Source: Asterochloris sp. CNOR1 (lineage: Eukaryota; Chlorophyta; Trebouxiophyceae; Trebouxiales; Trebouxiaceae). From it: a stretch of DNA of 64,000 nucleotides. How positions within the stretch are numbered: the stretch's first letter is position 1; every line of letters begins with the position of its first letter. This document shows, piece after piece, positions 31,052-60,572 of this stretch. A model generated the notes under the pieces. That model did no database searches. It was not told the DNA's origin and saw nothing but the letters and a program-made list of their open reading frames with translations. Where the stretch lies: positions 992,001 to 1,056,000 of the forward strand of contig OZ017759.1 of NCBI GenBank assembly GCA_963969365.1, read 5' to 3'. The translations under genes and the position numbers were made by a program.

Positions 31052-31468
31052 TCTGGCCTGAAAAGTGTCAGCTGCTGCGGATCTGCAGCTCATGACCCCC
31101 TGAGGTGCACCAGTCCTTCAGGCTGCAGCCTGTTGCGCAGATCTGCACATCCTGTGACAATCAGTGGAGGTTCCTGCTGTGTGACCATCCTGCATACCGG
31201 AAAGAGCCTTCGCGCTTTGATTAGCTTGAGAATGCTGCTACCAGGATGAGCAGCGTCATTGGATTCAGCATCTCTTGTGTGCAGCCAAGGAAGCACTTAT
31301 AGCTCATGCAATCACAGGGCACCTTGACCATGTAAGTAGGGGCACATGATCCCTGCAACGAGTGGCCTCCTTGATTCTGTGAACCTTCAAGCCTATTGGA
31401 AGACCCAACCTAGGTCCCACTCTCACTGCCAGCTGGCCACAATTGCAGCACTGAGGCTTCCAGCAGCC
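31052..31468. other. Intergenic region after the SDR gene
   Basis: No coding evidence. A TGTAA word at 31331-31335 lies 280 bases past the SDR stop and may be its polyadenylation signal. Confidence 0.45.
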
Positions 31469-40130: not shown

Positions 40131-43100
40131 ATGAATGCAAACGCACTCTCTCAGCTGCAGCGCAAACTGCAGGCGCTGCACTACACTGATCCTCTGGACC
40201 ACAGCAGTGCGCCTCTGGCCCAGAAGCTTGTGGATGACCTCCTGCAGGCCACTGAAAGCTACAGAGGACTGAAGCTCCAATCTGCAGCAAGACAGCAGGA
40301 GCTGGAGCAGAACGAGAGCAAAGTGAGATGCCATGATCTGGCAGATCAAGTGCCTTTCCGTGAACCTTTTGTGGAATGTCGCGTGCATGGGGCAGGTGTG
40401 CAGTCAGGGCAAGCAGCACCAACTGCATGCAGTGCAGTAGCCCAGCAGCTGAGTGTGCCGCCGTGCAACACAGGAATACCTACACACGCCAGCCCCATAT
40501 GCTGTGCCTGCTGCTTGCCATTGGCCCTGCGCGTGACAGGTCGGGCAGCATGCTGCATACAGTGCAGCTGTGTAGCATCACTCGGGCACGATGGCCTCCC
40601 TCATGATGCAGGTGAAGGTCTTGCACTGCAACAAAGGGCACCTGCAGTGTTGCTGCAGCTGTTAGGGAGATGCAACAAACTATCTCAGCACCCTATCCCC
40701 ATGCAGGAGGAGTGCACGCTAACACATGTCAGACAACAAGACCCAGCTGCAAGCAGTCTCATTCTGCTACACACACCGCACTTTCTCCATGCAGGTGGAG
40801 GTGCTGCACCGTAACGATGCGCGCCTGACCAGCAAGACCAAGCTTGCATGCCTCACCTGCAGCTGATGCATGTTGCAGTCCTGCTGTGCAATGCCCGGAT
40901 CTCCCATGTGCTGTGCATTTGCAGGCATAGGAGGGGTTTTGCACAACACTTCTGCTCAGGGTGCAAAACACGCAGGATGCCATACCTCCCTATGCTGCTG
41001 CACCACAACAAAGTGCGCATGGCCAGCAACAACAACCAGCTGCAGCCACTGAAGCTGTGCTACATACATTGCACTCTCCGTGTGCAGGTGGAGGTGTTGC
41101 ACCGCGACAATGCGCGCCTGACCAGCGAGAACAATCAGCTGCATCTACAGCTGCTACGGGAGTCCGAAAAGGTAGATGCTGCAGCCAGCGATGGGTACCA
41201 GGCCTCCAGGCGCTTGCAGAGCCAGATCACAGAGCTGACCTACTGGAAGCAGCAGACTGTGGAGCGTTTTGTGGAGCTGGAGAAGGAGAATGCTGGCCTT
41301 AAGGGACGCATCAACGACCTGCTCAGACTGGGAGAGCGCACCCCCAGACGTGAGACGAGGCACCTTTCTGTGGGTGTTTATCCTAGTTAATTTGGCCACA
41401 GGTGGCCTCGCTCAAACCGCCAGCAGTCTGCTAAACTGTGTTGAGCTTGAGCGCTGCCCTGTATCTGCTGCAGCTGATGTGGCGCTGCGGGAAGCCGGCT
41501 CCAAGATCAACATGCAGAGGCCTGCAGGTCAGTGACTGGTTTTGCTTCTGAACCAGCACCCATGCGACTTGAAGCAGCCTGCTCTCTGTTGGGTGACGTC
41601 GGTGCACGTGCTGTGCGGCAGCAACGCAGCTTGCAACTGTGTGAGTGCTGCACGCACAGGCTTCCAGGGCATGCCCACCTGCAGATCTGTCCCTGCAGAT
41701 GTGAGGCCGGCCAGGAGTGCGGGACGTGGGGGGACACCCCCACTTGAGCTTGTGAAGGCAGCAGACACAAGGTGGGCTCGTTCATAAATTGCTCAGCCTG
41801 TTCCCCTTGCTCCTCTTGTGTGTGTCCAGAAAACAGCTTGAGTGGGCTTGTTGAGCAGATGCTGTTGCTGCTGCCGCCTGCCCTTGTCTGGTGCAAAGAG
41901 TTGCTGAAGCCCTGCAGGGTCAACAGTTTGGAGGCCCAGCTGAGGGAAGCTGCTTCTGAGCTGGAGAAGTGTCAACGGCAGCTGCAGGAGTCACAGGTCA
42001 GCTCCTGCATATCTTGGCATTCTGTGCCAGCTTGTTGCCAGACTGCGTAATTAGTACGGAGCTTGAGAAGCCCTTTGCACATAGAGAGCCTATGCTGGCA
42101 GCGTTGGCCTCTGCTGCCCTGCAAAGTTTCAGTTAAGTGAGTGCAGATGCATCTGATCTGCCATGTTACTCATGAAGTGGCGGGCTGCCGGGCTCAAGAG
42201 ATGCAGGGCTGCAGCATACACATCTTTATGACACAGTTCCCTCCGTCATTCAGGCGGACTGACACACTGTTCTGTTGTGTTGCACAGACAGCCCACGACA
42301 TTGAGCTGGCATGCCTGGGGCCCAAGGTGGAGGCACAGGGGGCAGAACCTCACATTGCTGATGCTGCAGTTGAGGGGCGGGGACTGCTGCTTCACGGATT
42401 GTAACCCAAAGCATGTTTTGCTGCGCGCAGGCTGCCCTCAACACTGAAGCTGTGTGTCTGGTGCCCCACAATCAGCAGGCTGGCTCACCAAGCTGCTGTC
42501 CTCATGCGCAAGCCGGCCCTGAGGCATAAAGGCCCTGATCTTGGGTGCCTAGGGCCCATTGTGATACTCAACTGGCTTGCTAGCTATGCAGGCAGCTTAG
42601 GAATGGGGCCTGGGTGAAGCTTTGGCTGAAATCCAAACCCTGATGATGCCTCGGCTGGCCTGACTTCAGGAGACCTCGATGCCAGGCGCCCCGTCAAGCA
42701 TTCTGTGATCTATAGGCTGCTGTTTGCTGTGCAGGTGCAGGCGAATGGGAGGAGGAACACCACGATTGCCCTTTAAAATGCTTTGTTGCATTGCTGGCTG
42801 TGCAGGCAGCACTGAGGCGCAGGGACACCGAGATTGGACGTCTAGGGGCCCAGGTGGAGCGTGGCCGCGATGTGGACGGCCTCGTCATGCACCACCGCAA
42901 CGAGACCAATGAGAGCATCATCCTGCAGCTCAACCAGCAGGTAAGCATTTGCTCATTGCTTGGAGAAGGTCCAAGCCTCATGGATTGGCCTGCGCTTGAT
43001 GGAGGGAGCTGGGGAGCCTCCATGCAGGAACACGCCTGCTCCTTACTGGCGGCTCTGCTGGAGCTGCCTGTATCGGATGCAACAAGACCGTTCATGACAT

Positions 43101-46100
43101 CATCCTGCAGCTGCAGTGCGCAAGCCCCCTCGCTGATGCAGTTGACAAGATGCTTCCTGACAGCCCAGGAGGCCTGCTCCACCAGCAGCCGCTGCGCCCC
43201 TGCACCAGCTCGCCCTCACCAACTAGAAGATAGCTCCTGTCCTGAGACAAACCCATGCAGGGCTTGCCTGTGGCGACCGGGCCCTATGCGTGGACACAGA
43301 GGCAACCCAATAAGCCTGGCATGCCTGTGAGTTCATGTTGCGGTTGCCTGATTGCAGGTGGAGTTCCTCACAGGCCAGCTGGCAGACATGCAGCGTGAGG
43401 TTGAGGACAAGGCGCGCCTCAGCAGCACCCTGGAGGCCACAGAGCGCAGCCGCAAGCAGGTGTGGCCATCTGAGTCAGTGTAAGGACTGGCACCAGCTTG
43501 GTACACCACAGCTCACTTTGACACCTCATCAGCAACCTCAAGGCCACACAGCGCAGCAGGAAGCAGGTGGATTGCTTCTCTTGCCGTTGGCATCAAGGCT
43601 GCCATATGGGGTGTACCTGTGCCGTCTCGGCAGCACTTGGAGGCCACAGACCACAGCCACAAACAGGTGGGGCAGCCTGCTTGTGTCCATGTTGGTGTGT
43701 CCATTTTGGTGCAGGCAGCCAGTCTGTAAGGCAGAGCTCAGCAATGACGAGCAGCATCATGGAGGCCACCAAGGCCGCAGCCAGATGCAGTTGGGTTGCC
43801 CCTCTCACTCTTGACATCAAGCCTGCATAGCAATTAGAAACAGCAGTGCTCACTGGTGCAGCAGACGTGAAGTCAAATGGCAACGATGTGGCGGTGCTGG
43901 CAGCAGTCGCTGCCCTCTGCAGGCGGATACAGGAGAGCACATTAGCGTCACAAGCCCTCAGATGGCTGTCTGCAGGCAGCACCACAAATTGCTTACCTTT
44001 GTGGAGTGCCCCTGCTGCAGGAGGGCCAGCTGTAGGTAAATGTGACAAGGGTGCGGGATCCCACGTAGCAGGCTACAAGCAGCATCAACAAACAAGATCC
44101 ACACTGCTTGTTTGAGCCTGCAGCTGGGGGATCGGCTGCGGCTCAGTAGAAGAACACAGCGGTAGTCGTCCGCTGCCACGACTGTGGGGCTAAATGTTCT
44201 CTGATGAGACATCAGCAGTGATAACAGTGGTTGCTGCTTCTAGCAGGAGGAGCACCAGGAGGAAGCTGCCAAAGCTAGAGTCCACGGCAGCAGTCTTCAA
44301 GCAGCTTGAAACTGCAGCTGACAACACTGACATCATTGTATGGACCCTGCAGCTCGAGGACCGGCTGCAGCAGGCGCAGCAGGAGAACACAGCAGTGGTC
44401 AAGGATGTGGCTGACATGAAGGTGGCCATGATGAGGCTGCAGACGCAGCGCCTCAAATCGGGGTCCAAGGCCGGCCTGGAGGTGGACATGGCCCTGGCAA
44501 AGGTGGGGCGCGCTGCAGAGCAGCGTTTGCTGAGGTTTGGCGATGGCAAGTCAGAAGTCTAAGGGCCAATCTGATGAACACCATGGGCGACCCCTGCGAT
44601 GCAGCCATCAGCGCTGGATGTGTTCATGGGCAGCAACCCTACGCATCAAGCCTGATATCTGGTTGAATGAGCTGGCCTTGGGCTGGGGTTGGCTTTGGTG
44701 TCTAGCACGTGATGTGTGCAGAATGGGCTAGAGGTGGCTCCTGCTGCGTCGGATGTTAGCACCGGTGCTAGAGGACATCGGGGGACTGTGGCACAGCATT
44801 TGAGGCCCTGTGGCGCCCAGCCCCAGCCAGAGCACTCGTGCAAACTCATGACATTGCTCATGGACGTGCCCTCACCCCGCAGGTCTTGGATCTGAAGGCA
44901 GAGCTGACCAGCAGCAAGGAGGGGCAGGCAGCCCTGCGCAGAGTTGTGGAGGGTGCCAGAAAGGAGCAGGCAGATGCTGCTGCCAAGCACAAGGGCCTCC
45001 AGGTGCAGACTCACGCACTGTGCAGGCGGGCAGAAACTTCAAAGATGGACCCTGCTGCTGCACCAAGCTTTCACCCTGACTGATGTCCATGATAGGCACC
45101 TGCCGCTACGTGTTGCACTGGCGCACAGGGGACAGGCGCAATAGGATCTGCTGCAGTGGCTGAGTTGACACCAACAGGTTACCACAAGCCCGCCTGGAGG
45201 AAGGTTGCTCGTGACAACTCCCGCCTGCACCAACAGGTGTCCATGTCACAGGTGAATCTGCATGATAGCAAACAAGACTCTTTGTGGAAGCTCAAGGAGC
45301 TGTTTGGGAGCTGCTGCTTTGATGGGCCAAGCATCCCGAACGGGGCAAAAGAGTTACCGCCTGTGTCAGTGTGTACACCAACCTGGCAATGCCCTGCAGG
45401 AGGAGGTTGGGCGCCTGGAGTTCCTACTGGAGGAGTCTCGCAGCCAGCGGGAGACTTTGCAGAAGCAGGTTGCAGATGTAGCGGCTCAGCTGCAGGGCCA
45501 GCAGCGCAGCGCAGGCAGCAGCGCGGGGGAGTTGGCGGGCACCAGGCAGCGCCTGGAGCAGGTGGAGCGGCACCTGCAGACGCAGGCAGCCAGCCTGGAG
45601 CAGCTGCAGGCTGACAGGGAGGCTGCTGAGCGCAAGGTGGATTGCTGTGTAGAGTAGGCGTGCTGCAGCATGATCTCCCAGGGTGGAGATGTGGTTCTGG
45701 AGGGCCCCACCAGCAAACGGGAAGCTGCCGCCTGGAACCTGCAGCTGCAGGGAGGCTGCCAAGCGCTATGGCCAGCCACGTGTCCTGCCAGGGGTTGCAT
45801 TGTGGGTGCAGGCCCACCTGCATGTGCAGGCAGCGGACCCAGAGGCTGCACAGCGCAAGATAGGCTGCTGTGTGGCCATGTGGGCTCCAGGTGGACAAGG
45901 TCAACACCACTGGGATGGGGCCAGGTAGCCAGCCATTTGCAGCTGCAGGTCAGTGGGTAGGCCCCAGCTGCAACATTGGTGCGCCCTGCTGGGGTTGCTG
46001 GTGTGAAACAGGGCCAGGACAGTGCAGCGCCGCCTGCAGGCGCAGGCTGCTTGCTAGGATGAGCTGCAGGTGGATGGGGAGGCGATCAGTTGCACAGTAG

Positions 46101-49100
46101 GTAGCGCAGGGCTTGGCAGGAACAAGCACTTCTCACAACCCAGGCCTGCTTCTGAAGGTCACGGACATCTTGCAGAAGCAGGCCATCCCAAAGGCAGCCA
46201 AGGGCAGGACATTGCTAGGTTGACTCCATAGTCATTGTGGTCAGGCCCTGAACTCACCAACACAAGATGATCATATCGCCATGGCATGCCCTGGCATGCC
46301 TCTCAGCAGCTTGCACATGCTGGCTTGTGGCTGTAATGCAGGCTGCAGATGCCCAGCAGCAACTGTCTGCCCTTAAGGCTGCGGCAGCTGCGGAGCGGAC
46401 AGCCAAGCACAGCTTGGAGGGGCAGCAGACCCAGCTGCAAGGGACCTCCAGCAGGCTGGAGAGACAGCTTGCTGCGGCAGAGGCTGAGCGCGAATCTCTC
46501 AGCGCCCAGCTCAGGGTGCGTCTGCGTCACAGGCAACCAGATTGCAGCTGCATGTGGTGTGCAGGCTGCCAGCCAGCCTGCTTCAGACTTGCTGCTGAAT
46601 GAGCTGCATACGCCAATGCGCACCGCATGAATGCTGACTGGAAGCGCCTAAATGCTCCACGCATGCACAGTACCTCCCAAGGTTCCCATTGATGCCTCCA
46701 CAATGCTGCTGCTCGTGTGCTGTGTATCCCTTGGAGACGTCGGTGAAGACCCAGTTGTCAGTCTGCTTGCTGGAGATCATGAGCCAGGCCAGATTATGGG
46801 CAGACTATATCCTGCACAACCTGGAAGCACGTACTGTTGCGACGTCAAGCTGTCCTGCAGGACATCACCCAGGCCAAGCTGCGGGCAGCCTCAGCACTGC
46901 AGGCTGCCCAGGAGGACCGTGACCAGCTGGCAGAGCAGGCCCAGCTGCAAACGCGGCAGCTGCAGGAGGAGCGGGCACAGACTGACTCCCTGGCAGCTGA
47001 GCGGGACTCGCTGCAGGGGGAGGCCAACCGCCATCGCATTCGGGTGAGGCCCGCTGCTTCTGTGACAGACTGTTGCGTCAAACAAGTGCAATGACAACCA
47101 TGCAACAAGCACAAGAAGAAGGCATTCGAGGTATGCCTTGTGCTGCCCCAGCAGGCCTCATATTGGGGCTGTGGCAGCACCGGTCAGCCAAAAGACTTGC
47201 TGGACACGCGCTGATAGGCAGGCACTCAGCTCATTCTGCTGCTGCATGTGAAGGTGGATGGCCAAGCGGCCCTGGTAGCTGCTCTGATGCGCATGTGCTG
47301 CCTCAAGCTGGCCCTGTGGCCCGCAGGCCCACTGTTGTGCTGACCAGCATCCTGAAAGGCAAGAAGGAGGCGTTCCATGTGACAGTCGATGCTGCAATCA
47401 CTCCGATGCCGGGCACAGATTTTGTGTTGCTCGCAGGCATTCTGCAGCTCTCTCTGACGACAGCTGAGATGCTTTCTGTGCAAACCAGCATATAGACAGC
47501 AAGAAGGGTCTCCTGCAGGAGGCTGGGGCCCCACAAACTCCACCCGCCTTCCTGCAAGTCAGGAGTCTTGCTTTGCAGGCCAGTGTCCTGGAAGGCGAGA
47601 AGGAGGTTCTGCAGGAGGCTGCTGAGGCTGCCCAGGCCAGGCTGAGGGAGACACGGGAGTCCATGGCTGCCCAGATCAAGGAGCTGTCCCAGCTGCAGCA
47701 CCTGCCCCCACGCCTGCAGGACATGCAGGACCAGGTGGGTCACCCAGTAAATTTGGCTGGGCCATCACGGATGTTGTGAGGCTGATCGCAGCTCTTGCCC
47801 AGGACTCAAAGGACATGCTGAAACAGGCATGGGCTTCTCTATCACTGCCTCAGACCCTGCTCTGGTGAGAGCTGTGCCAAGATGTACAATGCCTGCACTC
47901 CCTTCAAAGATGCAGCATGGGCAAGTGCAAAATCACAGCTTCAGACAGGCTTCCCCTGAGCCTCATGAACTAGTCTCACTCCAGTGGTCTTCCCCGCAAC
48001 GGCACATATGCCTGTGCATCACTATGGCGCGCGGCCCATGTCTCAAATGGAGCACCATGCCTGCTGTAAGGGCCAATGCCTGTAGATGCAGCTGCCCAAG
48101 CAATAGAAGGGATGCTAAGCCGCCTGCTCCGTCTCATGCACCATACTCAGCATGCCCAGAGTCTGCAGCAGCGCCATGCTGCACCAATTCTGAGTGCTTC
48201 TGTGTATTGACGCAGGTCCGTGAGTACATGAACCGCGTGGTGCGGGCTGAGAGTGAGGCCTCAAGAGCAAAGGCGGAGGCAGTTCGTGTCAGCGAGGCTC
48301 TGCAGTGCGCAGACCAGGACATCCAGGCAAGCGCAGAGCAGTCTTCAGTGCCCATATGATCTCTATCTGCCATCGCTGCTGGGCATGGCGTGAGGCAGCC
48401 CTGTATTTTCTACTTGTGTGCTGTCGCATAAGCTCTGTGCTCTTTTGTTGCATGCAGCAGTGTCAATGCAACATTGTCATAGTGTGCTCGGCCGAACCTG
48501 ACCATATCATGAGGCTTCAACCAAGGGGCTGCATGCACCAACAGATGGCGCAGAGGCGCATCAGGAAGTCTTACCATGTCCCAGTTTGCTGCACCCTTGT
48601 TCTCATTGCATTTCTTGCCAGGCCTGCAGGCGCTGCACAGGGCACTGGATGAGGCAGAGGTTCAGAAGAATGCCCTGGGTACACAGCTGCAGGCCGTCCG
48701 CCGGGAGGACGAGCAGAGCAGGGCAGCATATGAGGTGAGCACTGATGCCTGTGTCGCTGCTTGGCAGGGGCTCATGCCTTCTTGGCAACAGGAGCACAAG
48801 CAGCACTGCCCAACGCTCAAGGTGGGGAGGGATACCCTGCACACTGGCATAGGTTTGGTCAGAGGAGCACAAGGGGGAGCTTGTTCTGTGCATGAGCACT
48901 AGATGAAGAGGTTAGCAAGATGAAGCAGCCCCTGGCTGGCAGGGACACATGCCTTGCTTGTCTGACTGCCAGCATGGCTTGCACATGTGCCAGACCTTGG
49001 TTTGCACCTGAGCTTCTTCCACTCTTACTGCCTGGCCCGCAAGCAGGCTGCAGTGGCATCGTGCCAGATCAGGCACACTCAGTCCAATTCACTGCAGCAC

Positions 49101-52100
49101 AATCCACACTGGCAGCCACCTCAATCTGCCCCTTCTCAGGTATACGGTCATGTGCCTGCTGCAGGCGCTGCAGTCAGAGCACAGGCACACCTCAGAGGCA
49201 CGGCGTCGTGCAGAGCAGGAGGCAGCCCACCTGCGGGAGGAGGCAGATGCTGCTGCCCACAACGTGCAGGACTCCAGTAGTGCACTGCAGGGTCACATGC
49301 AACGCATGGCGGCCCTGCAGCGTCAGCTGGGCACCCAGGTGGGACCTTCGCTGTGACTGTTCGCAAACACTGCAGCCCAAGATGCAGCACCAGCTTGGCA
49401 CCTAGCTGAGGCCTTCACGGTGACTGCCCACAGCACGCACGACTCCAGCATAGCACTCCCGGACCAAGGGCAGCGCATGGGTGCCCTACAGTGCCAGCTG
49501 GGCACACAGGTGGGTGCTATTGCTGATGTGAAGCCTGCACATGCAAAGGTGGCTCATGCGCCAACGTTTCCAGCCTGGTGGGTTGTGGGTTAGCAGGTGG
49601 CAGTGCCGTGCCTGATAGAGCAACGCACAGTGGTCCCTGCCAGGGACCATGTCCCCAGCCAGCATCTCTCTGCAGGAGGAGGAGCTTGAGAGGCTGCAGG
49701 CCCAGCTGTCGGCTGCGCAGCAGGCTGCCCAGGCCAGCAACGGACGAGAGGCAGAGGCTCGGGCGCAGGCACGTGAGTACGGGGAGCGGGCGCGGAAGGC
49801 CGAGGCGCTGTACGAGGAGGCTCAGACTGAGGTCGCGCATGTCAGGTGGGCCTTGAAGGGTTGTTTTGATAGTGAGGTCTTTGACAAGGCTGGGCATGCA
49901 TGGCTGGGGCGCTGCACGAGAAGGCCCAGACCGAGGTTTTGCATGTTGAGTAGAGCAAACATGTATGTCAAAGGATGATGCACAGCTAGATGGTTCCTGG
50001 CAGGAGCTGGATGACCATCGTGGCATGAGGACTGCCCTTCATAAGAAGCTGCCTGTTATGCTGCAGGGCAGCAGGTGATGTTGAGTTTTAGCATCCCCCT
50101 TCCAGCTGCTGCCTTGCACCATGAGCACCAGCAGTCAGATGGCAGCTAGTCAACACCGCAGCACAGTGCAGCACTGTTGACCCTGCATCACAGCCTGCTC
50201 ACTGTTCCGCAGGGCAGCGGCGGAAAGGGAGAAAGCCCGAGCTCGCACAGCCTCAGACGAGCTGCTGGCAGTCAGGCGGGAGCTGGAGGATCGCGCAAGG
50301 GAGGTGGACCAGTTGACCACGTTGTCTCTCCGGGGCGATGCCACCGTTCAGGAGTACATGGCGCGCCTGAGGGTAGGTCAGGGTGTGCAACTCCATCGGA
50401 CGAAAGCGATGTGCTGTTGAGCTGGGTTGGTGATCACAGCTGCTGCAGAGATGAGATAACAGCGCTCCAGCAACAAAAGCGGGCAGCCAGGCCCAATGAT
50501 GTTGACAAAATGCCGTACTTTCCTATCAGACCCACAAATCTGCTGCATGGTTGTCGTGCTGGGTCTGCACATGGCCTGGTGGACGTGCTGATGGGCTCTT
50601 GGAAGCTCGATTTGCCCTGGCCCACACGGGGCTGCCTTCTGTCTGCCAGGTTGCACAGTCTTCACCTGCGCTGTCCCTGCTTACCTGCAGAAGGCATCAG
50701 GCGAGGCGCGGGCAGCTGAGCTGCGGTCGGCAGATGCTGCAGCGGAGGTGCAGCGCCAGCAGGACATTGTGGCAGCCAAGGAGTCAGAACTGCGCAGAGT
50801 TCAGCAGGTGCAGTCTTACCACAGATGTGGTTTGTGTGGAAAGCAAGGGCAGCCCACCCTTCCCATATCCTGAGCCAGCCGGGTTGATGTGGTTGACCAA
50901 CGTAATGGTGTCCTGCGGCTGACTGCACAATCGACAGTCCAGTCCTGAGCCCTGTTTTGGTGTCTGCCTCCAGGCATCTTAGCCAAATGCAGCGTTGCAG
51001 CTTGACAGAGGCTGCTAGCAGAGCAGTGGCCACCGCATGTCACCAGTAACCACCTCCTCTCAAGACCTGTCATGTAGGCATAGCTGGAGGCTTTCCAGCC
51101 AGCTGGAGCTATGAACTGCAGCTGCAGGTTGAGCTGGACATTGCCGCCAAGGCAGGGTGCAAGGCGACCCGTTCACAGTCTAGGTTGTGATTGCTGGCCT
51201 TGCAGTCAGCTTGCTGAGCAGCAAGGCAAGGGCTCTGTCAGGCAGCGAGCTTACAGGTTTCCTGCTGTTGCAGGCCCTGCATGTAATGGACTCGATACGG
51301 GACAGCCTCTCGGCAGAACACTTGACAGAAGCCAAGGCATTCATGCAAGTCAACCGGTGGACTCCAGCTGTGTGGCATGGCTGGAGGCCTGGCAGATGCT
51401 GGCATTAGCCCAGCAGCCTGCAGGCAGAGACAGGCAGCAGTCTTGAGCAAGTCCTCCGGCTGCTGGTGCAGGCCCTGCAGACAGTGGACTCTGAGCGGGA
51501 CAGCCTCCAGGCAGAGCTGGACACCAAAGCCGAGGCGGTGGTGCAGCTGACTGAGGAGCTGGACCTGGCCCATCAGCAGACTGACGAGGCCCACAGACGG
51601 CTGGCAGCTGCAGAAGGGCGCCTGGGGCGGGCTGAAGAGCGTGTCACTGCTGCAGAGGCTGAGACGCAGGGCCTGCGGGCCTCGCTGGACAGCCTGCGGC
51701 AGCATGTGCAGGTGGGCGGCGTCAGGACCAGCAAGGGCTGGGGGTGCCTGAGACAGCTTGTGACTGCTGCTGAGGCGTCTTGGGTGTGTGGAGCAGGGAA
51801 GAGCAGGCTGGGGACGAGCCTGCCCGAGGCATGTCGAGGAAGACTCACCTTTGCACAGCCCTCACTTACACCAGGAAACTGCTCTCAAGCCTGTCTGCAG
51901 GCATGTACCCATATAGGACATGGTGCCCAGGCCAACAATCTGGCCGCCTCTTTGCAGGGCTTCTGCAAAGCCTTCATTCAACAGCAGACATGAATGTGAC
52001 TCCTGCTGCTGCAGGCCCTTGAAGAGCTGTGCCGTGGAGGGGTGTCCTGCCAGATGAGCACCGAGCTGCACATCAACGGCTGGGCCTTCCCATCGTCTAT

Positions 52101-55100
52101 TGTGATAAACCAAACAGGGCTGCACTGTCTCAGTCCAGGCTCTGCAGGACCCTCATGTGCTGCTGCTGCAGGCCCTGGAGGGGGAGTATGCAGCCCTGCA
52201 GGATGAGCACCGGGCTGTGGGAGAGGACCTGGAGGTCCTGGTTCGTGAGAATCAGGTGGTCAGCCAGCAGCTGGCCACAGCCGCCACAGAGAGGTGAGAG
52301 GCAGGCACTCCCTGGACTGGCGTGGGGAAGGGGCCACTGTGAGTATGGCTCAGCCCGCATGGCTGTGTGCACTTTCAGACCACATGGGTTTTGATGTCAG
52401 CATGGTCTAGGAAGTGGGAGCTAGCCACAGGCGTGGGGGTTCCCCTCCAGGTCACAAGCGGCTTAGGGAGGGCTCTTCGCCAGGGAGATCAGGCTTTTCA
52501 CAGCTGTGACTGATGCTGCCATGATGTACAAAGTGCAGGTCAATCAGCTGGCCACGGCCGCAACAGATGTGTGATTGACTGACCCAAGACTTGTGCTTAG
52601 GTATCTATTTGAGCCTGCACATGTCGCAAACCTGCAGCTGGCCACTGCGCCATCGCGAACCGGGATATCAGCGTGCTTGGTTTGCGTGGGTGCAGATGAG
52701 CTCTGGTAGGGCAGGGGCATGGCTGCCACAGTGGCACGCTGCATGATTGTGACACTTGAAATTAAGCTACATAATAGTGGGCCCAGCTGAGGCCTTTGCT
52801 GTGGCTGCAAGCTGTCACCAACAGCTGCCACAGCGGTCAGTGATGTCATGTATCTGGCCCTCACACAATTCAACAGCTCGCAGCCCTGCGTCTGCTGAGA
52901 CCTCTGCGTCTGCCGCAGGGATGAGTGGCACCTGGAGCTGCGCGGCTGCAAGGGCAAGCTGGCCACTACGGAGCAGCTTGTGCGGGCCAAGGAGACAGAA
53001 GTGGAGGATCTCAGACGCGCCTATGAGGCAAGTTACTTCTCATGGGCTCCTGCCGGTACAACAAGCCGAGTTCTGCCAGCAGGGTGCATGGTGGGCAATG
53101 CATGCCTGAGGGCTGCCAGCTCAAGCTTTGGACACACATCTGCTCTAGCCACTCTGGCACAACCCCATGTCCATCTCTTGTCTGAGCGTGTTAGGAGAAC
53201 AGCAGAAGCTGCTGCTGGCAGCAGTCTATCGGGCAGCATTGCTGTGCTCAGTGCCAAGCTACAAGCAGGGACCAGGACAAAGCTGTTGGTGCAGTGCCTG
53301 GCTGGGAAGCAGTCCACATTTGCAGAATGCGGCCGAACTCCAATGTGGAGTTCAAGCTCTACCTGCCGCGCAGCAGTCGAAAGGTGCAACAGTTGCCCTG
53401 GTGCCGGGGTGGCTGTTGGCAAAGCATTGTCAGCCTTCTCCAGCCTAAGCTGCACACCTGCGCGTGTCCCTGGTGCAGAGCCTGGCGGGTGAGGAGCGCC
53501 GCCTGCAGAGCACTGTGAGCCAGCTGGAGCGCGAACTGGCAGCGCGGGAGGGCCAGCTGGCAGGGCAAGCCGGGGAGATGGCTGCCCTGCAGGAGGCGCT
53601 GCGCACTGCCCAAGCGCAGTGCAACCAATATGTTATGGACTTGCAGGTGGGTCTGAGCTGCCTGCTGGCCGGCTCATGGTGTGCGCTGCTGACATTCCAA
53701 AAGGCAAGTATGGCCACAGGCGACAGCTGCTCAGCAAGTCCTGAGGGGGCTGCTGGACGCTTGACACAGTGCTGATTGGCTGAGACTTCTGCACTGCATG
53801 TCAAAGGGGACTGTGATAGCGGCTTACGGGAAGTTGCTTCATCAGCTGCTGCCAGAGCTGCATGTCTCAGTAAGCCATTTTGGATCCTTGTTGTTGCTTA
53901 AATGCACAAACCTCCTGTGTATGCCATGCACTCGATAGGAGAGCAGGGGGGTACCTGCACCAAGACCACCACAAATGCGCCCTGCAGGCGTTTGAACGCC
54001 AGACAGATGCTCTCAGCCGCCAGCTACAGCGCACAGGTGGGGAGGCTCAGGACTTGGGGCAGGAGCGCCAGGCTTTGCTGGATCGCCTGAGCACCGCCGA
54101 GCAGGTCAGTCCTGGCATTGAGTGTATGGGGACTGCATGTGATGGAAGGTGCAGTGGCAGGCACTAGCCCAGCATCTGCATTGCCATGTGCCTTGCGACA
54201 AGAGGATCAGGCTCTGCTGGGCTCTGAGCCCTGCAGAGCAACTCAGCCCTGCTTGAGGGATCAAGCTTAGCAGCCCTTTGGGTGGGCCACCGGAGTGGGC
54301 CTGCAGAAGCACAGGTGCTTGCTGGCCTGAGAATCCCATTTTGACAGGCAGTGAAGGCTGTGTCAGGTCCTCCAGCTTGATGTGTGGGCTATGGGACGAT
54401 GATGCCCGCTGCAGATGACTTTCTTGCAGCAGCCCTGCTCAGCCCAGTGGCAGAGGTCCTGGTCTGCAAACCTTGCAAATGTGGACTGATGTCCATGCTG
54501 CAGGTGCGCTTCCAGGTGGAGCAGTCCCGCGATGCGCTGCAGCGCCAGCTCGCGGCGCTGGATGGGCAGCTGCATGTGTCCCAGGCCAGGCAGGAGGAGG
54601 CGCAGGCAGACAACCAGGTGGGGCTGTGAGCAGCCTGACACAGAGTGTACGCTTCAGGGCCAACCCAGGCCCTGCATGCAGCCTCCACTGGCCTGCTGCG
54701 TGGTGTCTGCTTGCCCTGCTGCAACGGGTTGCCTGCGTGGTGGCCAATCTGCCCAGTCACTGCAGGCAGACTGCCGTGTCATGTTGACCGAGGCACTTGT
54801 AGCTCTGCAGGCTCTGCAGCACAGTATGCTAGACAGCTGGCATGGTGGTAGCTGTGCCTTCCCAATGCATCCCTTCCACCGCAGGCCCTGCAGCACAAGC
54901 CACTCCAGAGACCATCAGGATGGCCAATTATGCATCGTCTCAGAATAGGGCGCAGACTGTTGCAAGCAACTTCCTCACAAAACTTTGTGGTGTCTGCTCC
55001 TGCAGCCCCTGGCCGGGCAGAAGGGCTTACTGTGCCTGACCTCGTGACTTCCCTGTTGACCTCTTGGTGCCCTTCTTTCTGTTCCTGCAGGCGCTGCAGC

Positions 55101-58100
55101 ACAAACTGGCTCTGGAGGCCAGCAGAATGGCCGAGTTGGAGAGCCTGCTGGGGCGCATGCGCAGCAGCCAGTTCAAGGGGGAGTTCGATGCGCAGTCCAC
55201 CAGCGAGCGCACCCAGCAGCTGCAGGAACGCAACACTTTGCTGGAGGAGCAGGTCAGGCTTTTCCAGGCTGCTGCTGCTCCATGTGCTGCCTTGACTGTG
55301 CAGACGATGAGCAGCTGCGAATACACAAGACGCTGCTGAAGGAGCAGGTGGTCCTTACATCACCGCCAGCACTTGCTTCTTGCTGGCAGGCAGGCTGCCA
55401 CATCTGGGGGAGTGCAGCCTTTGCCTGATGCCCTGGTGCTGCTGCACAGCACAGCTTCAAGGGCATGCTGGCCTGTACATGCATAGCCTGCAGGTCCTCC
55501 CTGTGGACTGCCTGGCAAAGAGATGTGAACAAACCTTACCAGCAGTCGCACACCACCCCCTGCATTACCACTAGCCTACGTGATGGACTGGATGCAACAA
55601 AATACGGTCTCTGCCCTGCTCTGCACTTGCCTGCATCTGCCGCCATGCACTGTTCAGCCCGCCTGAGTGCTATGCATGTCGCGCCCATGTAAGGAGGGCA
55701 ATATATGGTGTCATGCTTATGCAACCAGCCACCTGCTGTTAGGCACAGCAATTTCTTACTCATTTGCACATCTAGGCACAGAGCATTGCATGCTCCAAAA
55801 GCCACTGTCATGATCGCTGACCAGATGTACAGTCACAGCGCAGCCTTGCATCACCGTGGCGAAGACATGGTTGTGGCGATCACACCAGTCCCTCCCTGCC
55901 TGCTGTCAGCCAAGTGACAGGCCTGCAGCATATCCATACAGGCCAGCAATTGCAGCTGGAACAAACTGCAGCAGCCTGTCGTCTGGCACACGATCGCAGC
56001 CAAGCCACGGTTGCTTTCTCTGCATGCAGGTCAGCGGCCTGCAGAGCCAGATAACGGCCCTGCAGCACACCAGTGCAGCCCAGCAGCAGGAGCTTGAGCG
56101 GCTGCAGCAGCATGCAGCCACAGCCACAATCAGCGCCGCTGGTGCAGAGCTCAAGCTGGATGCAGTGCCCAGGTGTGAGGGCATGTGCGCTGTGGCAGTT
56201 ACGCGCTTCACCTGCATCTGGCTCTAAGCTGCTGTGCTGGCCCAGGATGGTAGCAGCAGTCATAAGTGCATTCAGAGCAAGCCAGCATGACCAAAGCAAC
56301 TGCCAGCATGCTCTGCTCGACTCAAATGGTCCAGTCACCTCAAACCCCCGCTCAGTCAATAGAGCCTATTGCCAGCTCCTATGAACAAACATCTCAAAAC
56401 TTGGACTGTGCAGGCAAGATGTGCAGGTCCAGCTGGATGCTGCACAAAACCACATCAACAAGCTTCAGCAGGAGGTGCAGCAGCAGGCAGCTGAGAAGCA
56501 CGAGGCCCTGCAGAGGGTCGGGCAGGCTCAGGTGGAGATAGCAGCCCTAAGGTCTGTCTTCACAGAGACTCTCATCTCTAAGTGGCTTTGCTTGGTATGT
56601 GCACAATACGGTCATGACGAGAATTGGTTGTGGACATGCTGCCTGTCTGACTGCTGCGTGTGTTGCCATCTTCTATTGCAATGGCAAGGCTGTTGCAGCA
56701 GCCTCTCTCCAGGTGTCTGGTGGAGCAGCATTGGCCCCCAAGTTGCAAGGCAGAGGCTGGCTCAGCTTGCTGCATGACACATGTGACAAGCCAACAGCTG
56801 GCCTTGTCATCTCTGAACAGTGCACTTGATGCCACTGCTGCAAAAACCTTGGCATGAGGGTCAAGACATGGCGGCTCGCTGATGCAGTCTGGATTCAACC
56901 TGCGGGTTGAGCACCATGCAATGCTTGGGAAGCAGTTGCAATGAGGGGTTTCCCATTGAACCCCTGCCAGACATGCTCCCCTTGATGCCATGCTGACATG
57001 AGTGCCTGCTGCTCAGTCGCTTTCGCTGCCTGCTGATGCATTTTGCCGCCACTGCCTGCAGGGCAACCGCCATGCACCAGAGCATGGGCAGCAGCGATGG
57101 GAGCCTGGCTGTCAGCCAGATCGCTGACCTGGACAGGCGCAACACCGCTCTGCACACGGAGCTCGCAGGGGCTCGCCAGGAGCTGCAGACCATGCATGCG
57201 CAGCTGCAGACCGCGCAGCAGGAGCTCAACCAGCTGCGTGAGGTGAGGGCCTGCCGGATAGTGTCTTGACCATGCTGAGTGTGCAGCTGCTGCTGCTGGC
57301 ACACCCAGCAGGAGCTGAGACAGCTTCAGAGTCGTCAGCCCCAGACAGTCGCTTTACAGCCTTGACCCAGGCTCCTCACTGCCCAGCAGCAGAGTGTGAG
57401 AGCTTGCTGCGGGTGGCGCTCTCTTTCCAGTGGTATTGGTGGGCCAGACAGACCGCATCTTCAGCAAGGCAGGCTGCAGCTGCTTGATGTGGATTGGGTA
57501 GCAAGTTGGGTAATAATGAGGCAGACAAAATCTGTGTCGATGCAGAACCTGCCTTTGCCAGCTCCGTGTGCCTGCTATACTGCCTGTCGTCGTACCTGTT
57601 GCTTGCAGGACAGCAGCTGGGCATCATCATGTTCCGTTCACCGCTGTTGGGTAGGTCATTTTGTTTCGACGACCTGCCTTCTGATGTGCAGGACAGCAGC
57701 CAGGCTGCTGCCATGCTCAGCGCCCCTTCATCAGCCCAGCCGTCTACTGCGTCAAATCGCGCTGTGATGTGCAGGGGACATCTCAGGCAACTGCCCAGCA
57801 CATCTGCCCTGACCACCCTATCTGCAGCTTGATGGTGCATCCTGTGCCTGCTGCTTGCAGATAGCAAGACGACACTCATGCTCTTCTTCAATCATGAGCA
57901 TTGCCATAGGTTGCAGTCCCTGTATTCTGATGTGCAGATGGACGGCCAGGTCATTGCTCTGCTCACTCTTCCTTTGGCAGTCCAGGGGTCAGTCCTTCCA
58001 TCGGCCAAGCCTTCTCTGCCGCGGCCACCTGCCCTCTGGTGTGCAGGAGAACAGCCACGCCACTGCCATCATCACGCAGCTGGATCTGGAGAAGAGCCAG

Positions 58101-60002
58101 CTGCAGCGGGCACAGGCAGCAAAGCCTTCTCATAGCAGCAGTCCTAGGGCTGAGGCTGGGCAGGCGGGTGTTTTTGCACTGGAGGGCCTGAAGCTCGACC
58201 TGCAGCAGGAGAGGGCAAGGCGGGAGCAGGTCAGTCTCTTGCCTGGCTGGCTCTCCTGCTGCCGGGTGCTCAGGCCTTCAGAGGCCATGCATATATGCCG
58301 GAGTGGTCCTGCCCCACCAACTGATGCTTTCGGGAGATGAGTTGCACCGCAAGGGCCTTATATACTAATGAGGTTGCGGCACGATTTGCAGCAGGAGTGG
58401 GCACATGGGACCACGTGGGGCTTACACAGGTGGATCTGAACTCAGGCAGCCAGCCACATTGCCCTTCATCCGAGGGTGTCATGAAGGCATGGTTTTGAGT
58501 AGAGCCTTGACGAGCACCTTCCTTAAGATCAGGGCAAACTACATCGGCATGCTGGCTGCAAGATCAGGCACCCATTCCTTATTCAGCTGCCTCTACCTGC
58601 ATGAGGAGCCCAGCAATTAAATCACAATTTGTCAGTCGTCAGGGAGGGGCCTGCCGCTGGGTCTATGTTTGCTGCTGGGTCGATGCACATTTTTGGAGAG
58701 CAGACAGAGTGTTGTTGACTTTCCTAAGTTGACAAAGCACTTGGCAAAAGATAAGAAACGGCCTGCCTCTGGGTCACAAATGCCATGCTGGGTGGCTGCA
58801 GGCGGAGCATGACTTTGCTGAGCTGATGGAGTCAGTGGAGGCCATGCGTCCAGCAGCAGGAACACCCCAGCCGCGCACCTCGGGCACCATGCGGGTGAGT
58901 TGGGGGACCATTGGGGAAACTAGATGCATGTGAGGCACAGCTGCAGGGACCCCGCAGAGGTGTGGGCAATCCTGGACCCATTTGCTGCAGTGATGATGAG
59001 GCGTCTAAGGACTGGACAGCTTAAGATTTGTGACGCTGCTCTCCCCAACTTGGTGGGCAGCGGACCTGCTACAAAAGCTGCATGGCCTCGAGTCTGCTGT
59101 AATCCCTATTAATGCAGCCCTCAGGCAGGACCGTGCTCTGTGCAGTCTCCAAGACAGCAAAGTGCAAAAGACTATTGAGCAGAGAAGGCAGCCCTGAAGC
59201 AGTAAAATTGGTTCACCCAAGCTGACAATGACACATCACCAGGCTACCCTGCAGGTCACTGCGGTGCAGCTGGAGCCTGACACTGCTCTCTTCAGTTTGC
59301 CCACCTTGCGGCCACGAGCGCTCACTCTTCCCCAAGGCCACTGCAAAGCAGCTGAAGCGCAAGGTTTCTGGCTGAGCTGAGCTGATCACAGCCATCAGGC
59401 TGCCCCAGCAAGTCACTGTGGAGCAGCTGGAGCGTCAGGTTGTTTGTTCAAGAGTGCCCAGCTAGCTGCCTAAGGTATTCAGTGACCCTGCAGGTCACTG
59501 TGGAGCAACTGGAGCGGGAGAATGCTGCCCTCAAGCAGAACCTGGCGCGCACGCGCGGCCTAGTTGGGGATGTGCAGGACGAGCTGCTCAGGGCACGCCA
59601 GGATGTCGGTGGCACCACAGTGCAACTGGCTCAGGTCAGCTTTTTGCACAGCCGGTACACTGAGCGGCCTGCTCGGCCTTGGCACTGCACATGCAGGGGC
59701 AAGTCCTAATTGATGATGAAAAAAGCCAGTCCTTGTCAGGGCGCCACTGCACACCTGTTTCCAGTCAGCAGCCCTGGGGCCTCCAAGTGCCTGTGGGGAA
59801 GGATGTGTGCAAGGAGCACCTTGATCTCAGCCAAGACACTGGGCATGCAGACTGCCATCATGGGTGAACCAACAGCATTGGGTATGCACCATGCGCTATT
59901 TGACCACCCTGCTGTCATGTCATGTAGGCTAGTACTGCCCTGCTGCAAGAGGCCCAGACTTCAATGCGGCCACAGTCAGCAGGTTCTCAGGCTTCCGTAT
60001 AG
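40131..60002 (+). CDS. BLD10: BLD10/CEP135 centriole cartwheel protein
   Basis: A 20-kb gene. Supported exons: 40131-40322, 41088-41349, 41474-41527, 41918-41996, 42806-42940, 43358-43459, 44353-44502, 44883-45002, 45400-45636, 46342-46515, 46861-47043, 47579-47734, 48216-48326, 48630-48734, 49165-49338, 49676-49845, 50213-50372, 50691-50807, 51472-51711, 52172-52293, 52919-53027, 53479-53646, 53988-54104, 54504-54617, 55091-55252, 56030-56172, 56414-56551, 57062-57242, 58047-58229, 58802-58894, 59494-59634 and 59928-60002. The sum is about 1,555 residues, nearly all coiled coil; Chlamydomonas Bld10p has a similar length. Diagnostic blocks: N-terminal LQRKLQALHYTDPLD, LTSENNQLHLQLL, RRDTEIGRLGAQVERGRD, SLRGDATVQEYMARL, VDSERDSLQAELDTKAE and QYVMDLQAFERQTDALSRQL. 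BLD10/CEP135 links the cartwheel spokes to the centriole microtubules. Phases fit except between 41527 and 41918, where an exon or splice site is unresolved. Two introns (48327, 53028) have GC donors. Confidence 0.92.
40783..41057 (+). repeat. Two degraded copies of BLD10 exon 2 start in intron 1
   Basis: Copy A (40783-40868) repeats the intron end and the first ~70 bases of exon 2 (GTGGAGGTGCTGCACC, then GATGCGCGCCTGACCAGC) and runs into TGA. Copy B (40999-41057) encodes LHHNKVRMASNNNQLQ against LHRDNARLTSENNQLH. The real exon starts at 41088. Copy A lies 293 bases upstream of it. Confidence 0.88.
42288..42366 (+). repeat. Degraded copy of the BLD10 exon at 42806
   Basis: The segment after a CACAG acceptor-like site reads DIELACLGPKVEAQ, matching DTEIGRLGAQVERG in the real exon 518 bases downstream, including the shared GGGGCCCA(A/G)GTGGAG core. 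The copy soon loses similarity and I do not include it in the CDS. Confidence 0.65.
43417..43794 (+). repeat. Four tandem copies of an exon 3' end and its donor
   Basis: The end of the exon 43358-43459 (CCTGGAGGCCACAGAGCGCA, then CGCAAGCAG and the donor) is followed by three degraded copies at 43525-43570, 43625-43670 and 43747-43794. Distances are 108, 100 and 122 bases. Each keeps the GGCCACxxxxCxCAGC pattern; the first two also keep CAG/GTGG at the junction. Confidence 0.88.
44114..44168 (+). repeat. Degraded copy of the BLD10 exon at 44353
   Basis: 44114-44168 matches 44343-44400 (CCTGCAGCT, GGCTGC, AGAACACAGC, GTAGTC against GTGGTC), covering the acceptor and first ~48 bases of the exon 230 bases further on. 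An internal TAG and indels disable it. Confidence 0.75.
47340..47379 (+). repeat. Degraded copy of the BLD10 exon at 47579
   Basis: CCAGCATCCTGAAAGGCAAG then AAGGAGGCGTTCC matches the exon start CCAGTGTCCTGGAAGGCGAG then AAGGAGGTTCTGC, 236 bases upstream of it. Confidence 0.7.
49390..49515 (+). repeat. Degraded copies of the 3' end of BLD10 exon 49165-49338
   Basis: 49429-49515 aligns with 49259-49344, including the exon end GCCAGCTGGGCACACAG and a GTGGGT donor-like site. A shorter copy (CACCAGCTTGGCACCTAGCT then GAGGCCTTCACGGTGACTG) lies between them at 49390-49425. Spacing of the longer copy is about 171 bases. Confidence 0.85.
51124..51349 (+). repeat. Degraded copies of the BLD10 exon at 51472
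   Basis: 51264-51349 reads ALHVMDSIRDSLSAEHLTEA against ALQTVDSERDSLQAELDTKA in the real exon, with its own CTGTTGCAG acceptor-like site 200 bases upstream. A shorter fragment at 51124-51160 matches the later part (GAGCTGGACA then GCCAAGGC). Confidence 0.88.
52004..52070 (+). repeat. Degraded copy of the BLD10 exon at 52172
   Basis: The acceptor CTGCTGCAG and following GCCCTTGAAGAG...CAGATGAGCACCGAGCTG match the exon start and its CAGGATGAGCACCGGGCTG. The copy is 154 bases upstream. A fragment of the exon's other end (CAGCTGGCCACGGCCGCAAC) recurs downstream at 52546-52565, and a still shorter one near 52634. Confidence 0.82.
54803..54910 (+). repeat. Two short copies of the acceptor region of BLD10 exon 55091
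   Basis: GCAGGCTCTGCAGCACA at 54808-54824 and GCAGGCCCTGCAGCACAAGC at 54881-54900 match GCAGGCGCTGCAGCACAAAC at the real exon start (55087-55106). Each keeps a usable-looking acceptor. Confidence 0.7.
57601..57960 (+). repeat. Four copies of the acceptor region of BLD10 exon 58047
   Basis: Copies at 57601-57640, 57681-57716, 57761-57800 and 57927-57960 each have GCAG followed by a GACAGCAGC/GGACATCTC/ATGGACGGC-type start. The best, at 57681, has GTGCAGGACAGCAGCCAGGC then TGCTGCCAT, against GTGCAGGAGAACAGCCACGC then CACTGCCAT in the real exon. The first three are spaced about 80 bases apart. Confidence 0.8.
59246..59440 (+). repeat. Two copies of the acceptor region of BLD10 exon 59494
   Basis: 59246-59281 (CCCTGCAGGTCACTGCGGTG then CAGCTGGAGC) and 59401-59440 (AAGTCACTGTGGAGCAGCTG then GAGCGTCAG) match the exon start CCCTGCAGGTCACTGTGGAG then CAACTGGAGC. 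The first copy retains a perfect acceptor. Confidence 0.85.
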
Positions 60003-60541: not shown

Positions 60542-60572
60542 ACAACATACAATGCCTTGCATTGTATGTTGT
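60542..60572. repeat. Perfect 14-base inverted repeat with 3-base loop
   Basis: ACAACATACAATGC at 60542-60555 and its exact reverse complement at 60559-60572, separated by CTT. It is AT-richer than its surroundings and lies in the intergenic gap. Confidence 0.9.

What the first reader, a model, noticed from the sequence alone, without database searches (positions are those of the whole stretch)
40131..60002. BLD10 introns are built from degraded copies of neighbouring exon edges
At least ten BLD10 introns carry degraded copies of the exon next to them, usually 30-90 bases of exon plus its splice site. Examples: copies A and B of exon 2, three copies after 43459, copies of the exons at 44353, 47579, 49165, 51472, 52172, 55091 and 59494, and four copies before 58047. 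They sit at spacings of roughly 70-300 bases on either side of the real exon and decay to different degrees. This suggests intron growth by recurrent tandem duplication of exon-intron boundaries. Established intron-gain models (introners, reverse splicing, whole-exon duplication) do not predict this pattern.
Basis: partly seen in the sequence, partly recalled or inferred. Interest (0 to 1): 0.78.

Follow-up and report, generated by a model that had tools for sequence, protein, structure and literature searches.

The report
Introns grown by duplicated exon edges
In this green alga, short stretches spanning the border between an exon and its intron were repeatedly copied in tandem, leaving decaying exon fragments inside introns of about half the gene models sampled; the introns appear to have grown while the protein stayed the same.

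Summary
In BLD10 (33 exons, one open frame of 1,579 codons that needs no copy) I find 29 aligned exon-edge matches (28 copies) in 16 of 32 introns; inverted/reversed introns give 0 of 64. Over 324 kb (window plus 26 stretches from the 18 large contigs) there are 139 direct against 2 inverted repeats at 40-600 bp. 26 of 53 gene models carry at least one copy.

The 92 matches found in adjacent introns obey a side rule: exon heads only in the upstream intron (45), exon tails only in the downstream intron (47). The wrong side behaves like background (1 against 65 of 610). Head-to-tail duplication across a splice junction gives this by geometry; pasting of dispersed copies does not. Four of the youngest loci are exact or nearly exact tandem units of 64-119 bp; other young rows are not.

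So introns most likely grew by small junction-spanning tandem duplications, mostly old. What differs is the geometry (growth, not creation), the density and the decoy splice sites left behind.

The parts
40131..60002 (+). BLD10/CEP135 gene, 33 exons, 1,579 codons; the open frame needs no copy
   Evidence: one open frame to a stop at 60002; PDB 9qzc 'Centrosomal protein, putative' E 4.8e-14, 5fcm 'Basal body protein' E 1.9e-10, 7bji 'Centrosomal protein of 135 kDa' E 1.7e-6; no Pfam family at E 0.001
40607..40644 (+). third copy of head of exon 2 (41088-41349)
   Evidence: score 41, 82% over 38 nt, spacing 476
40765..40841 (+). copy A of head of exon 2 with acceptor
   Evidence: score 84, 82% over 77 nt, spacing 293; alignment
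40996..41044 (+). copy B of head of exon 2
   Evidence: score 48, 80% over 49 nt, spacing 99
43079..43112 (+). copy of tail of exon 42806-42940
   Evidence: score 33
43524..43569 (+). first copy of tail of exon 43358-43459, donor GT kept
   Evidence: score 57, 85%
43623..43673 (+). second copy of the same exon tail, donor GT kept
   Evidence: score 55, 84%
43750..43793 (+). third copy of the same exon tail
   Evidence: score 35, 81%
44114..44167 (+). copy of head of exon 44353-44502
   Evidence: score 50, 83%
45708..45766 (+). copy of tail of exon 45400-45636
   Evidence: score 39
45842..45873 (+). copy of tail of exon 45400-45636
   Evidence: score 34
45922..45949 (+). copy of tail of exon 45400-45636
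   Evidence: score 31
46009..46083 (+). copy of tail of exon 45400-45636
   Evidence: score 51, 77% over 75 nt
47338..47370 (+). copy of head of exon 47579-47734
   Evidence: score 36
49383..49423 (+). copy of tail of exon 49165-49338
   Evidence: score 37, spacing 67
49424..49514 (+). copy of tail of exon 49165-49338 with donor
   Evidence: score 77, 77% over 91 nt, spacing 171
49902..49946 (+). copy of tail of exon 49676-49845
   Evidence: score 45
51262..51317 (+). copy of head of exon 51472-51711 with acceptor
   Evidence: score 57, 80%
52003..52068 (+). copy of head of exon 52172-52293 (two aligned pieces, two rows)
   Evidence: scores 35 and 31; one piece of 66 nt
52545..52567 (+). copy of tail of exon 52172-52293
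   Evidence: score 36
54192..54251 (+). copy of tail of exon 53988-54104
   Evidence: score 35
54805..54823 (+). copy of head of exon 55091-55252
   Evidence: score 33
54881..54925 (+). copy of head of exon 55091-55252
   Evidence: score 38
55310..55349 (+). copy of tail of exon 55091-55252
   Evidence: score 35
55898..55978 (+). copy of head of exon 56030-56172
   Evidence: score 35, 73% over 78 nt
57672..57714 (+). copy of head of exon 58047-58229 with acceptor; weaker relatives near 57605, 57762, 57932
   Evidence: score 51, 84%; for the weaker ones
58379..58403 (+). copy of tail of exon 58047-58229
   Evidence: score 30 (at threshold)
59246..59287 (+). copy of head of exon 59494-59634 with acceptor
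   Evidence: score 49
59401..59434 (+). copy of head of exon 59494-59634
   Evidence: score 48, 88%, spacing 82

Best explanation
The copies are remnants of small head-to-tail tandem duplications (units probably about 60-200 bp) that spanned a splice junction. Duplicating [intron tail + exon head] leaves a truncated exon head upstream of the real acceptor; duplicating [exon tail + intron head] leaves a truncated exon tail downstream of the real donor. The mRNA is unchanged as long as the outer splice sites are used, so each such event is absorbed as intron growth and the truncated copy then decays. Repeats of the event give arrays (for example 107, 208 and 329 bp after 43459). Shown: direct orientation, locality, side rule, exact or nearly exact tandem units at four young loci, differences from the exon at all codon positions, occurrence on most of the sampled stretches. 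Inferred: that the outer sites are used (from the open frame, no cDNA); that a full exon with both edges wins over a truncated one because the exon is recognised as a unit (exon definition); that the duplications arise by fill-in and end joining at staggered breaks; that most are old and that larger spacings reflect later insertions or further duplications.
For: Direct against inverted repeats at 40-600 bp: 140 vs 5 in 244 kb (beyond 600 bp 121 vs 100) and 139 vs 2 in 324 kb, falling off beyond 300 bp. Exon vs own flanking introns, score >=35: 64 of 814 pairs, inverted 0, reversed 0, introns elsewhere 1 of 4,033. Side rule 92 of 92 in adjacent introns; expected side 65 vs wrong side 1 of 610 at score >=16. 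Exact or nearly exact units: L008 119 bp at 88% across an acceptor, L013 three 68-bp units at up to 99%, L024 64 bp, L003 65 bp with 62 aligned. Intronic part of the unit, 88 pairs: score >=15 in 20 direct, 1 inverted, 0 reversed; direct beats inverted in 57, ties 11, loses 20. Intron next to the junction: identity >=0.6 in 17 of 72, against 1, 0, 1 and 0 of 72 at four shifted offsets. Mismatches at codon positions 1/2/3 are 16/13/20% over 39 copies. 46 of 49 copies with a kept AG or GT/GC would add a stop or shift frame if used. Introns with a copy are longer (65 introns, median 554, vs 344, median 308; partly because longer introns offer more search space).
Against: Of 11 young rows (>=85% identity, >=40 bp) only 5, at four loci, have matched length close to spacing; L009, L015, L016, L017 (two) and L019 do not. 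In most older cases homology is clear only in the exon part. A neutral simulation reproduces this only if copies are old (about 0.15-0.3 substitutions per site per copy, depending on indel rate); a constant rate would give more young ones than the 6 of 72 exon parts at >=0.91 identity. L019 2270 has 86-88% identity in its exon part but no visible homology on the intron side. 27 of 39 matched copy parts have neither an in-frame stop nor a frameshift, being short. Of 20 matches on coding or mixed targets, 5 break the side rule, one of them a whole-exon duplication in L012. Exons come from a home-made predictor and no transcript was available.
Confidence: 0.8

Rival explanations
1. Chance similarity between compositionally biased CAG/CTG-rich coiled-coil exons and introns.
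For: BLD10 is a coiled-coil gene by its sequence, and the acceptor consensus is CTGCAG|G.
Against: Inverted, reversed, other-intron and wrong-side controls near zero.
Confidence: 0.01
2. Tandem genomic duplication that created the introns (TGD model): an exonic segment with AGGT is duplicated and the stretch between the two AGGTs becomes the intron.
For: CAG|GTG donors and CTGCAG|G acceptors look alike, as that model needs. 5 of 501 introns show the TGD diagonal (spacing = intron length) at score >=14 against 0.2 expected.
Against: Only 5 of 501, three of them in L008/L017 where edge copies of the kind described here also lie. Copies usually sit inside a longer intron, and 67 of the 92 matches run across the splice site into intron (35 acceptor, 32 donor).
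Confidence: 0.08
3. Short exon edges are copied and inserted elsewhere in the gene (templated insertion during break repair, or via RNA) rather than duplicated in tandem.
For: Homology often ends near the junction and spacing usually exceeds the matched length; 6 of 11 young rows are not exact tandems.
Against: Insertion should also put heads in downstream and tails in upstream introns: 0 of 92 in adjacent introns. Four young loci are exact or nearly exact tandems.
Confidence: 0.08
4. The copies are functional alternative or regulatory splice sites kept by selection.
For: 21 of 39 acceptor copies and 20 of 43 donor copies score at or above the 5th percentile of real sites, against about 10-13% of random intronic AG/GT. 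Exon parts are better preserved than intron parts.
Against: About 60% keep the dinucleotide (AG 23 of 39, GT/GC 26 of 43; 19 of 34 body-defined copies), no more than shared descent would give; 46 of 49 would disrupt the frame; differences at all codon positions.
Confidence: 0.06

Closest known systems
Tandem genomic duplication model of intron gain (reviewed in PMC3443670; Drosophila cases in PMC2891723; passages of both read)
   Same: Local tandem duplication of gene segments; similarity of donor and acceptor sites; mRNA preserved.
   Different: There an exonic segment makes a new intron of the size of the duplication. Here the unit spans an existing junction, the intron only grows, and truncated exon edges remain as decoys.
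Internal gene duplication (Gao and Lynch 2009; only its title seen, in a reference list; content recalled, the paper is not held)
   Same: Duplication of intronic and exonic segments within genes as a frequent process.
   Different: From recall, 8-17% of genes per genome carry such duplications; here 26 of 53 gene models carry edge copies, by a different method, with a side rule not known to me from that work.
Small tandem duplications by fill-in and end joining at staggered breaks (PMC8355091, abstract and passages read)
   Same: Short head-to-tail duplications; described there as the most common short (<100 bp) insertions in the human genome, made by fill-in to near-blunt ends and end joining.
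   Different: That work uses engineered breaks in mouse cells (43-bp overhangs in one assay); units here are larger and the repair route is not tested.
Introners (PMC9860276; start of abstract seen in a listing)
   Same: Source of intron sequence on a genome scale.
   Different: Introners insert copies of themselves into many genes; these copies resemble their own neighbouring exon and not the other sampled introns.

Membership tests
Small head-to-tail tandem duplications | Direct orientation, close spacing | tested here: met
   139 direct vs 2 inverted at 40-600 bp
Small head-to-tail tandem duplications | Matched length equals spacing in young cases | tested here: inconclusive
   5 of 11 young rows, at four loci: L008 121 aligned for spacing 119, L013 (three 68-bp units), L024 64 for 64, L003 62 for 65; the other 6 rows fall short
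Small head-to-tail tandem duplications | Little or no homology at breakpoints | tested here: inconclusive
   Overlap 2 bp in L008 and 0 in L024, too few and blurred by divergence
TGD intron gain | Repeat spacing equals intron length, exon tail at intron end and exon head at intron start | tested here: not met
   5 of 501 introns at score >=14, 0.2 expected
TGD intron gain | Intron absent from orthologues | not testable with these tools
   Held genome collections are prokaryote; no relative of this alga could be reached
Introner | Similar sequence in many unrelated introns | tested here: not met
   In the sample only: introns elsewhere 1 of 4,033 at >=35; far direct 121 vs inverted 100. Whole-genome searches did not complete
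Whole-exon duplication | Copy carries both splice sites and the full exon | tested here: not met
   0 of 92; one true case in the sample, L012

The most novel reading that the evidence does not exclude
In this lineage a past wave of short tandem duplications was a main source of intron sequence. Because exons are recognised as units, duplications that truncate an exon at one edge are invisible to the mRNA and act as a one-way ratchet that lengthens introns and fills them with decoy splice sites of normal strength, while whole-exon duplications are purged.
Probability: 0.35. Interest if true: 0.75.

Novelty: new variant of a known kind. Interest (0 to 1): 0.56.

Why it matters
How introns get longer without transposons is hard to document, because intron sequence decays quickly. 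The conserved exon preserves a readable record of each event, so exon-edge fossils could date and count intron-lengthening duplications. The truncated exons with near-normal splice sites are a natural experiment on how the spliceosome picks one of several similar sites.

Tried and rejected
Chance and composition: rejected by the inverted, reversed, other-intron and wrong-side controls. Dispersed elements: rejected on the 324 kb sample only. TGD intron creation as the main route: 5 of 501 introns. Preferential destruction of splice sites in copies: not seen. A large reservoir of copies just below threshold: not seen, excess over the wrong side 63-83 of 610 pairs at thresholds 11-16. Deficit of whole-exon duplications (13.3 of 92 expected under uniform placement) is suggestive only, because large spacings may be composite. 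In the first exon model L013 545 spanned a donor; in the second it is intronic, and I count it so. In some searches the controls were averages of several scores and so too lenient; one search repeats both with single controls and the effect holds (20 against 1; 17 of 72 against 0-1). In one search, 8 of 100 hits were dropped because they did not reach 6 nt into the exon. My first two joinings of BLD10 exons had boundary slips and did not read open; corrected. Paper searches: (two found nothing; in 20, 28, 32 and 61 only the best 10 or 12 of 24, 657, 13 and 355 were listed); no listed title is about junction-spanning duplications as a cause of intron growth, and the library holds only open-licence papers.

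Full report
What is there. The gene is BLD10/CEP135: 299 residues joined from its first seven exons match PDB chains named 'Centrosomal protein, putative' (9qzc, E 4.8e-14), 'Basal body protein' (5fcm, E 1.9e-10) and 'Centrosomal protein of 135 kDa' (7bji, E 1.7e-6); Pfam gave no family for them. I hand-checked 33 exons that give one open frame of 1,579 codons ending with the stop at 60002. No copy is needed for this frame. Against these exons the introns contain 29 aligned exon-edge matches at score >=30, or 28 copies, in 16 of 32 introns; inverted and reversed introns give none of 64 at that score. The stretches between an exon edge and its outermost copy add up to 4,304 of 15,140 intron bases (28%).

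It is genome-wide. The window lies in a 56.4 Mb genome of 21 contigs. I took one 10-kb stretch from each of the 18 large contigs and later a second from 8 of them. In the first 244 kb, direct repeats 40-600 bp apart outnumber inverted ones 140 to 5, while more distant ones are nearly balanced, 121 to 100. In 324 kb, with a stricter E-value, the numbers are 139 to 2. By class the 139 are 53 exon-edge/intron, 33 exon/intron, 28 intron/intron, 9 intergenic and 16 others, so duplications also hit introns and intergenic DNA. I wrote a small hidden Markov gene finder trained on the sample itself. As a check, Pfam recognises domains in 3 of 4 further window proteins so predicted and in the neighbouring PP4R3 gene; the finder also merges some neighbours. 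With 471 exons of at least 70 nt, 64 of 814 exon/intron pairs score >=35, against 0 inverted, 0 reversed and 1 of 4,033 random introns. 26 of 53 gene models with three or more such exons carry a copy and 27 carry none; the model that holds BLD10 has 23 against 8.0 expected and the spread among genes is about twice Poisson.

The side rule. Of 92 hits touching exon sequence, 45 lie in the upstream intron and all are in the exon's head half; 47 lie in the downstream intron and all are in the tail half. When I ignored the annotation and searched 900 bp each way, 94 of 95 hits on non-coding targets followed the rule, and the one that did not lies beyond the next exon. Of the 20 further hits on coding or mixed targets 5 do not follow it; two of the 20 are the two views of one whole-exon duplication in L012. 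The cleanest control compares each exon half with the expected and with the wrong flanking intron: at score >=16, 65 of 610 against 1 of 610, with 3, 1 and 0 for inverted, reversed and wrong-side inverted sequence; wrong side and inverted do not differ (paired Wilcoxon p 0.75). A tandem duplication that spans a junction gives this pattern by geometry alone. Insertion of copied exon pieces, introners or whole-exon duplication would not.

Tandem origin. Four young loci show the mechanism: a 119-bp unit across an acceptor in L008, 88% identical and strictly head-to-tail, three 68-bp units in L013, and units of 64 and 65 bp in L024 and L003. Against this, 6 of the 11 rows with at least 85% identity over 40 bp have a matched length clearly shorter than the spacing. 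The intronic half of the presumed unit is still detectable in part: score >=15 in 20 of 88 pairs against 1 inverted and 0 reversed, and identity >=0.6 next to the junction in 17 of 72 against 0-1 of 72 at shifted offsets. A neutral simulation accounts for such weak intron homology if both copies have accumulated about 0.15-0.3 substitutions per site, because the real exon is held by selection while both intron halves drift. The same simulation says that young events should be common under a constant rate; only 6 of 72 exon parts are at least 91% identical. So either the rate has fallen or something removes young duplications; I cannot tell which.

Fate of the copies. Differences from the exon fall on all three codon positions (16, 13, 20% over 39 copies), as expected for largely untranslated copies, though only 12 of the 39 short matched parts themselves carry a stop or frameshift. 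About half keep splice sites of normal strength: 21 of 39 acceptor copies and 20 of 43 donor copies lie at or above the 5th percentile of real sites. Using the sites of the 49 copies that keep AG or GT/GC would add a median of 203 nt and shift the frame or add a stop in 46. I see no sign that the sites were specifically destroyed (19 of 34 body-defined copies keep them). My inference is that a truncated exon, having one splice site but not the other, is not recognised as an exon, so the event is nearly neutral and is absorbed as intron growth. Whole-exon duplications, which would be recognised, are rarer than uniform placement predicts (13.3 of 92 expected, none in that set; one elsewhere), though large spacings may be composite and weaken this point.

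Compared with what is known. Tandem duplication is an established intron-gain route (PMC3443670, PMC2891723; passages read), and small tandem duplications by fill-in at staggered breaks are an established mutation class (PMC8355091, abstract and passages). The TGD signature proper, spacing equal to intron length, is present in 5 of 501 introns at the threshold used. What differs here is that units span existing junctions, introns grow rather than arise, and the record is dense enough to read gene by gene. No title listed by my ten searches is about this, and I could not compare other eukaryotes, so I cannot say whether this alga is exceptional or whether the statistic has not been applied elsewhere.

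Noticed in passing
whole sample (window, L002-L019): Acceptor consensus is strong, CTGCAG|G (T 0.89, G 0.92, C 0.97), donor CAG|GTGAG; 155 of 264 introns between predicted exons of at least 60 nt are phase 0.
   Followed up: partly
G000 (genome of the window): 56.4 Mb, window GC 57.7% and a contig of 110,056 bp resemble the published Asterochloris glomerata genome (56 Mb, 56-62% GC, mitochondrion printed as 11,0932 bp; passages of PMC6652019). A lichen photobiont is likely but unproven.
   Followed up: partly
L012:6435-6974: A true whole-exon tandem duplication (153 and 147 nt exons, 88% identical over 200 nt, 393 bp apart).
   Followed up: partly
L013:545-748: Three 68-bp tandem units, up to 99% identical, the least diverged longer duplication in the sample.
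   Followed up: partly
window 60542-60572: By eye, an inverted repeat with 14-bp arms and a 3-nt loop, upstream of the PP4R3 gene.
   Followed up: no
window 2800-2981: 18/36/54-bp tandem repeats in a predicted proline/valine-rich protein with no Pfam match.
   Followed up: no
window 23577-32758: The gene finder merged a TFIIS gene and a short-chain dehydrogenase gene (Pfam); it also merged BLD10 with both neighbours.
   Followed up: partly
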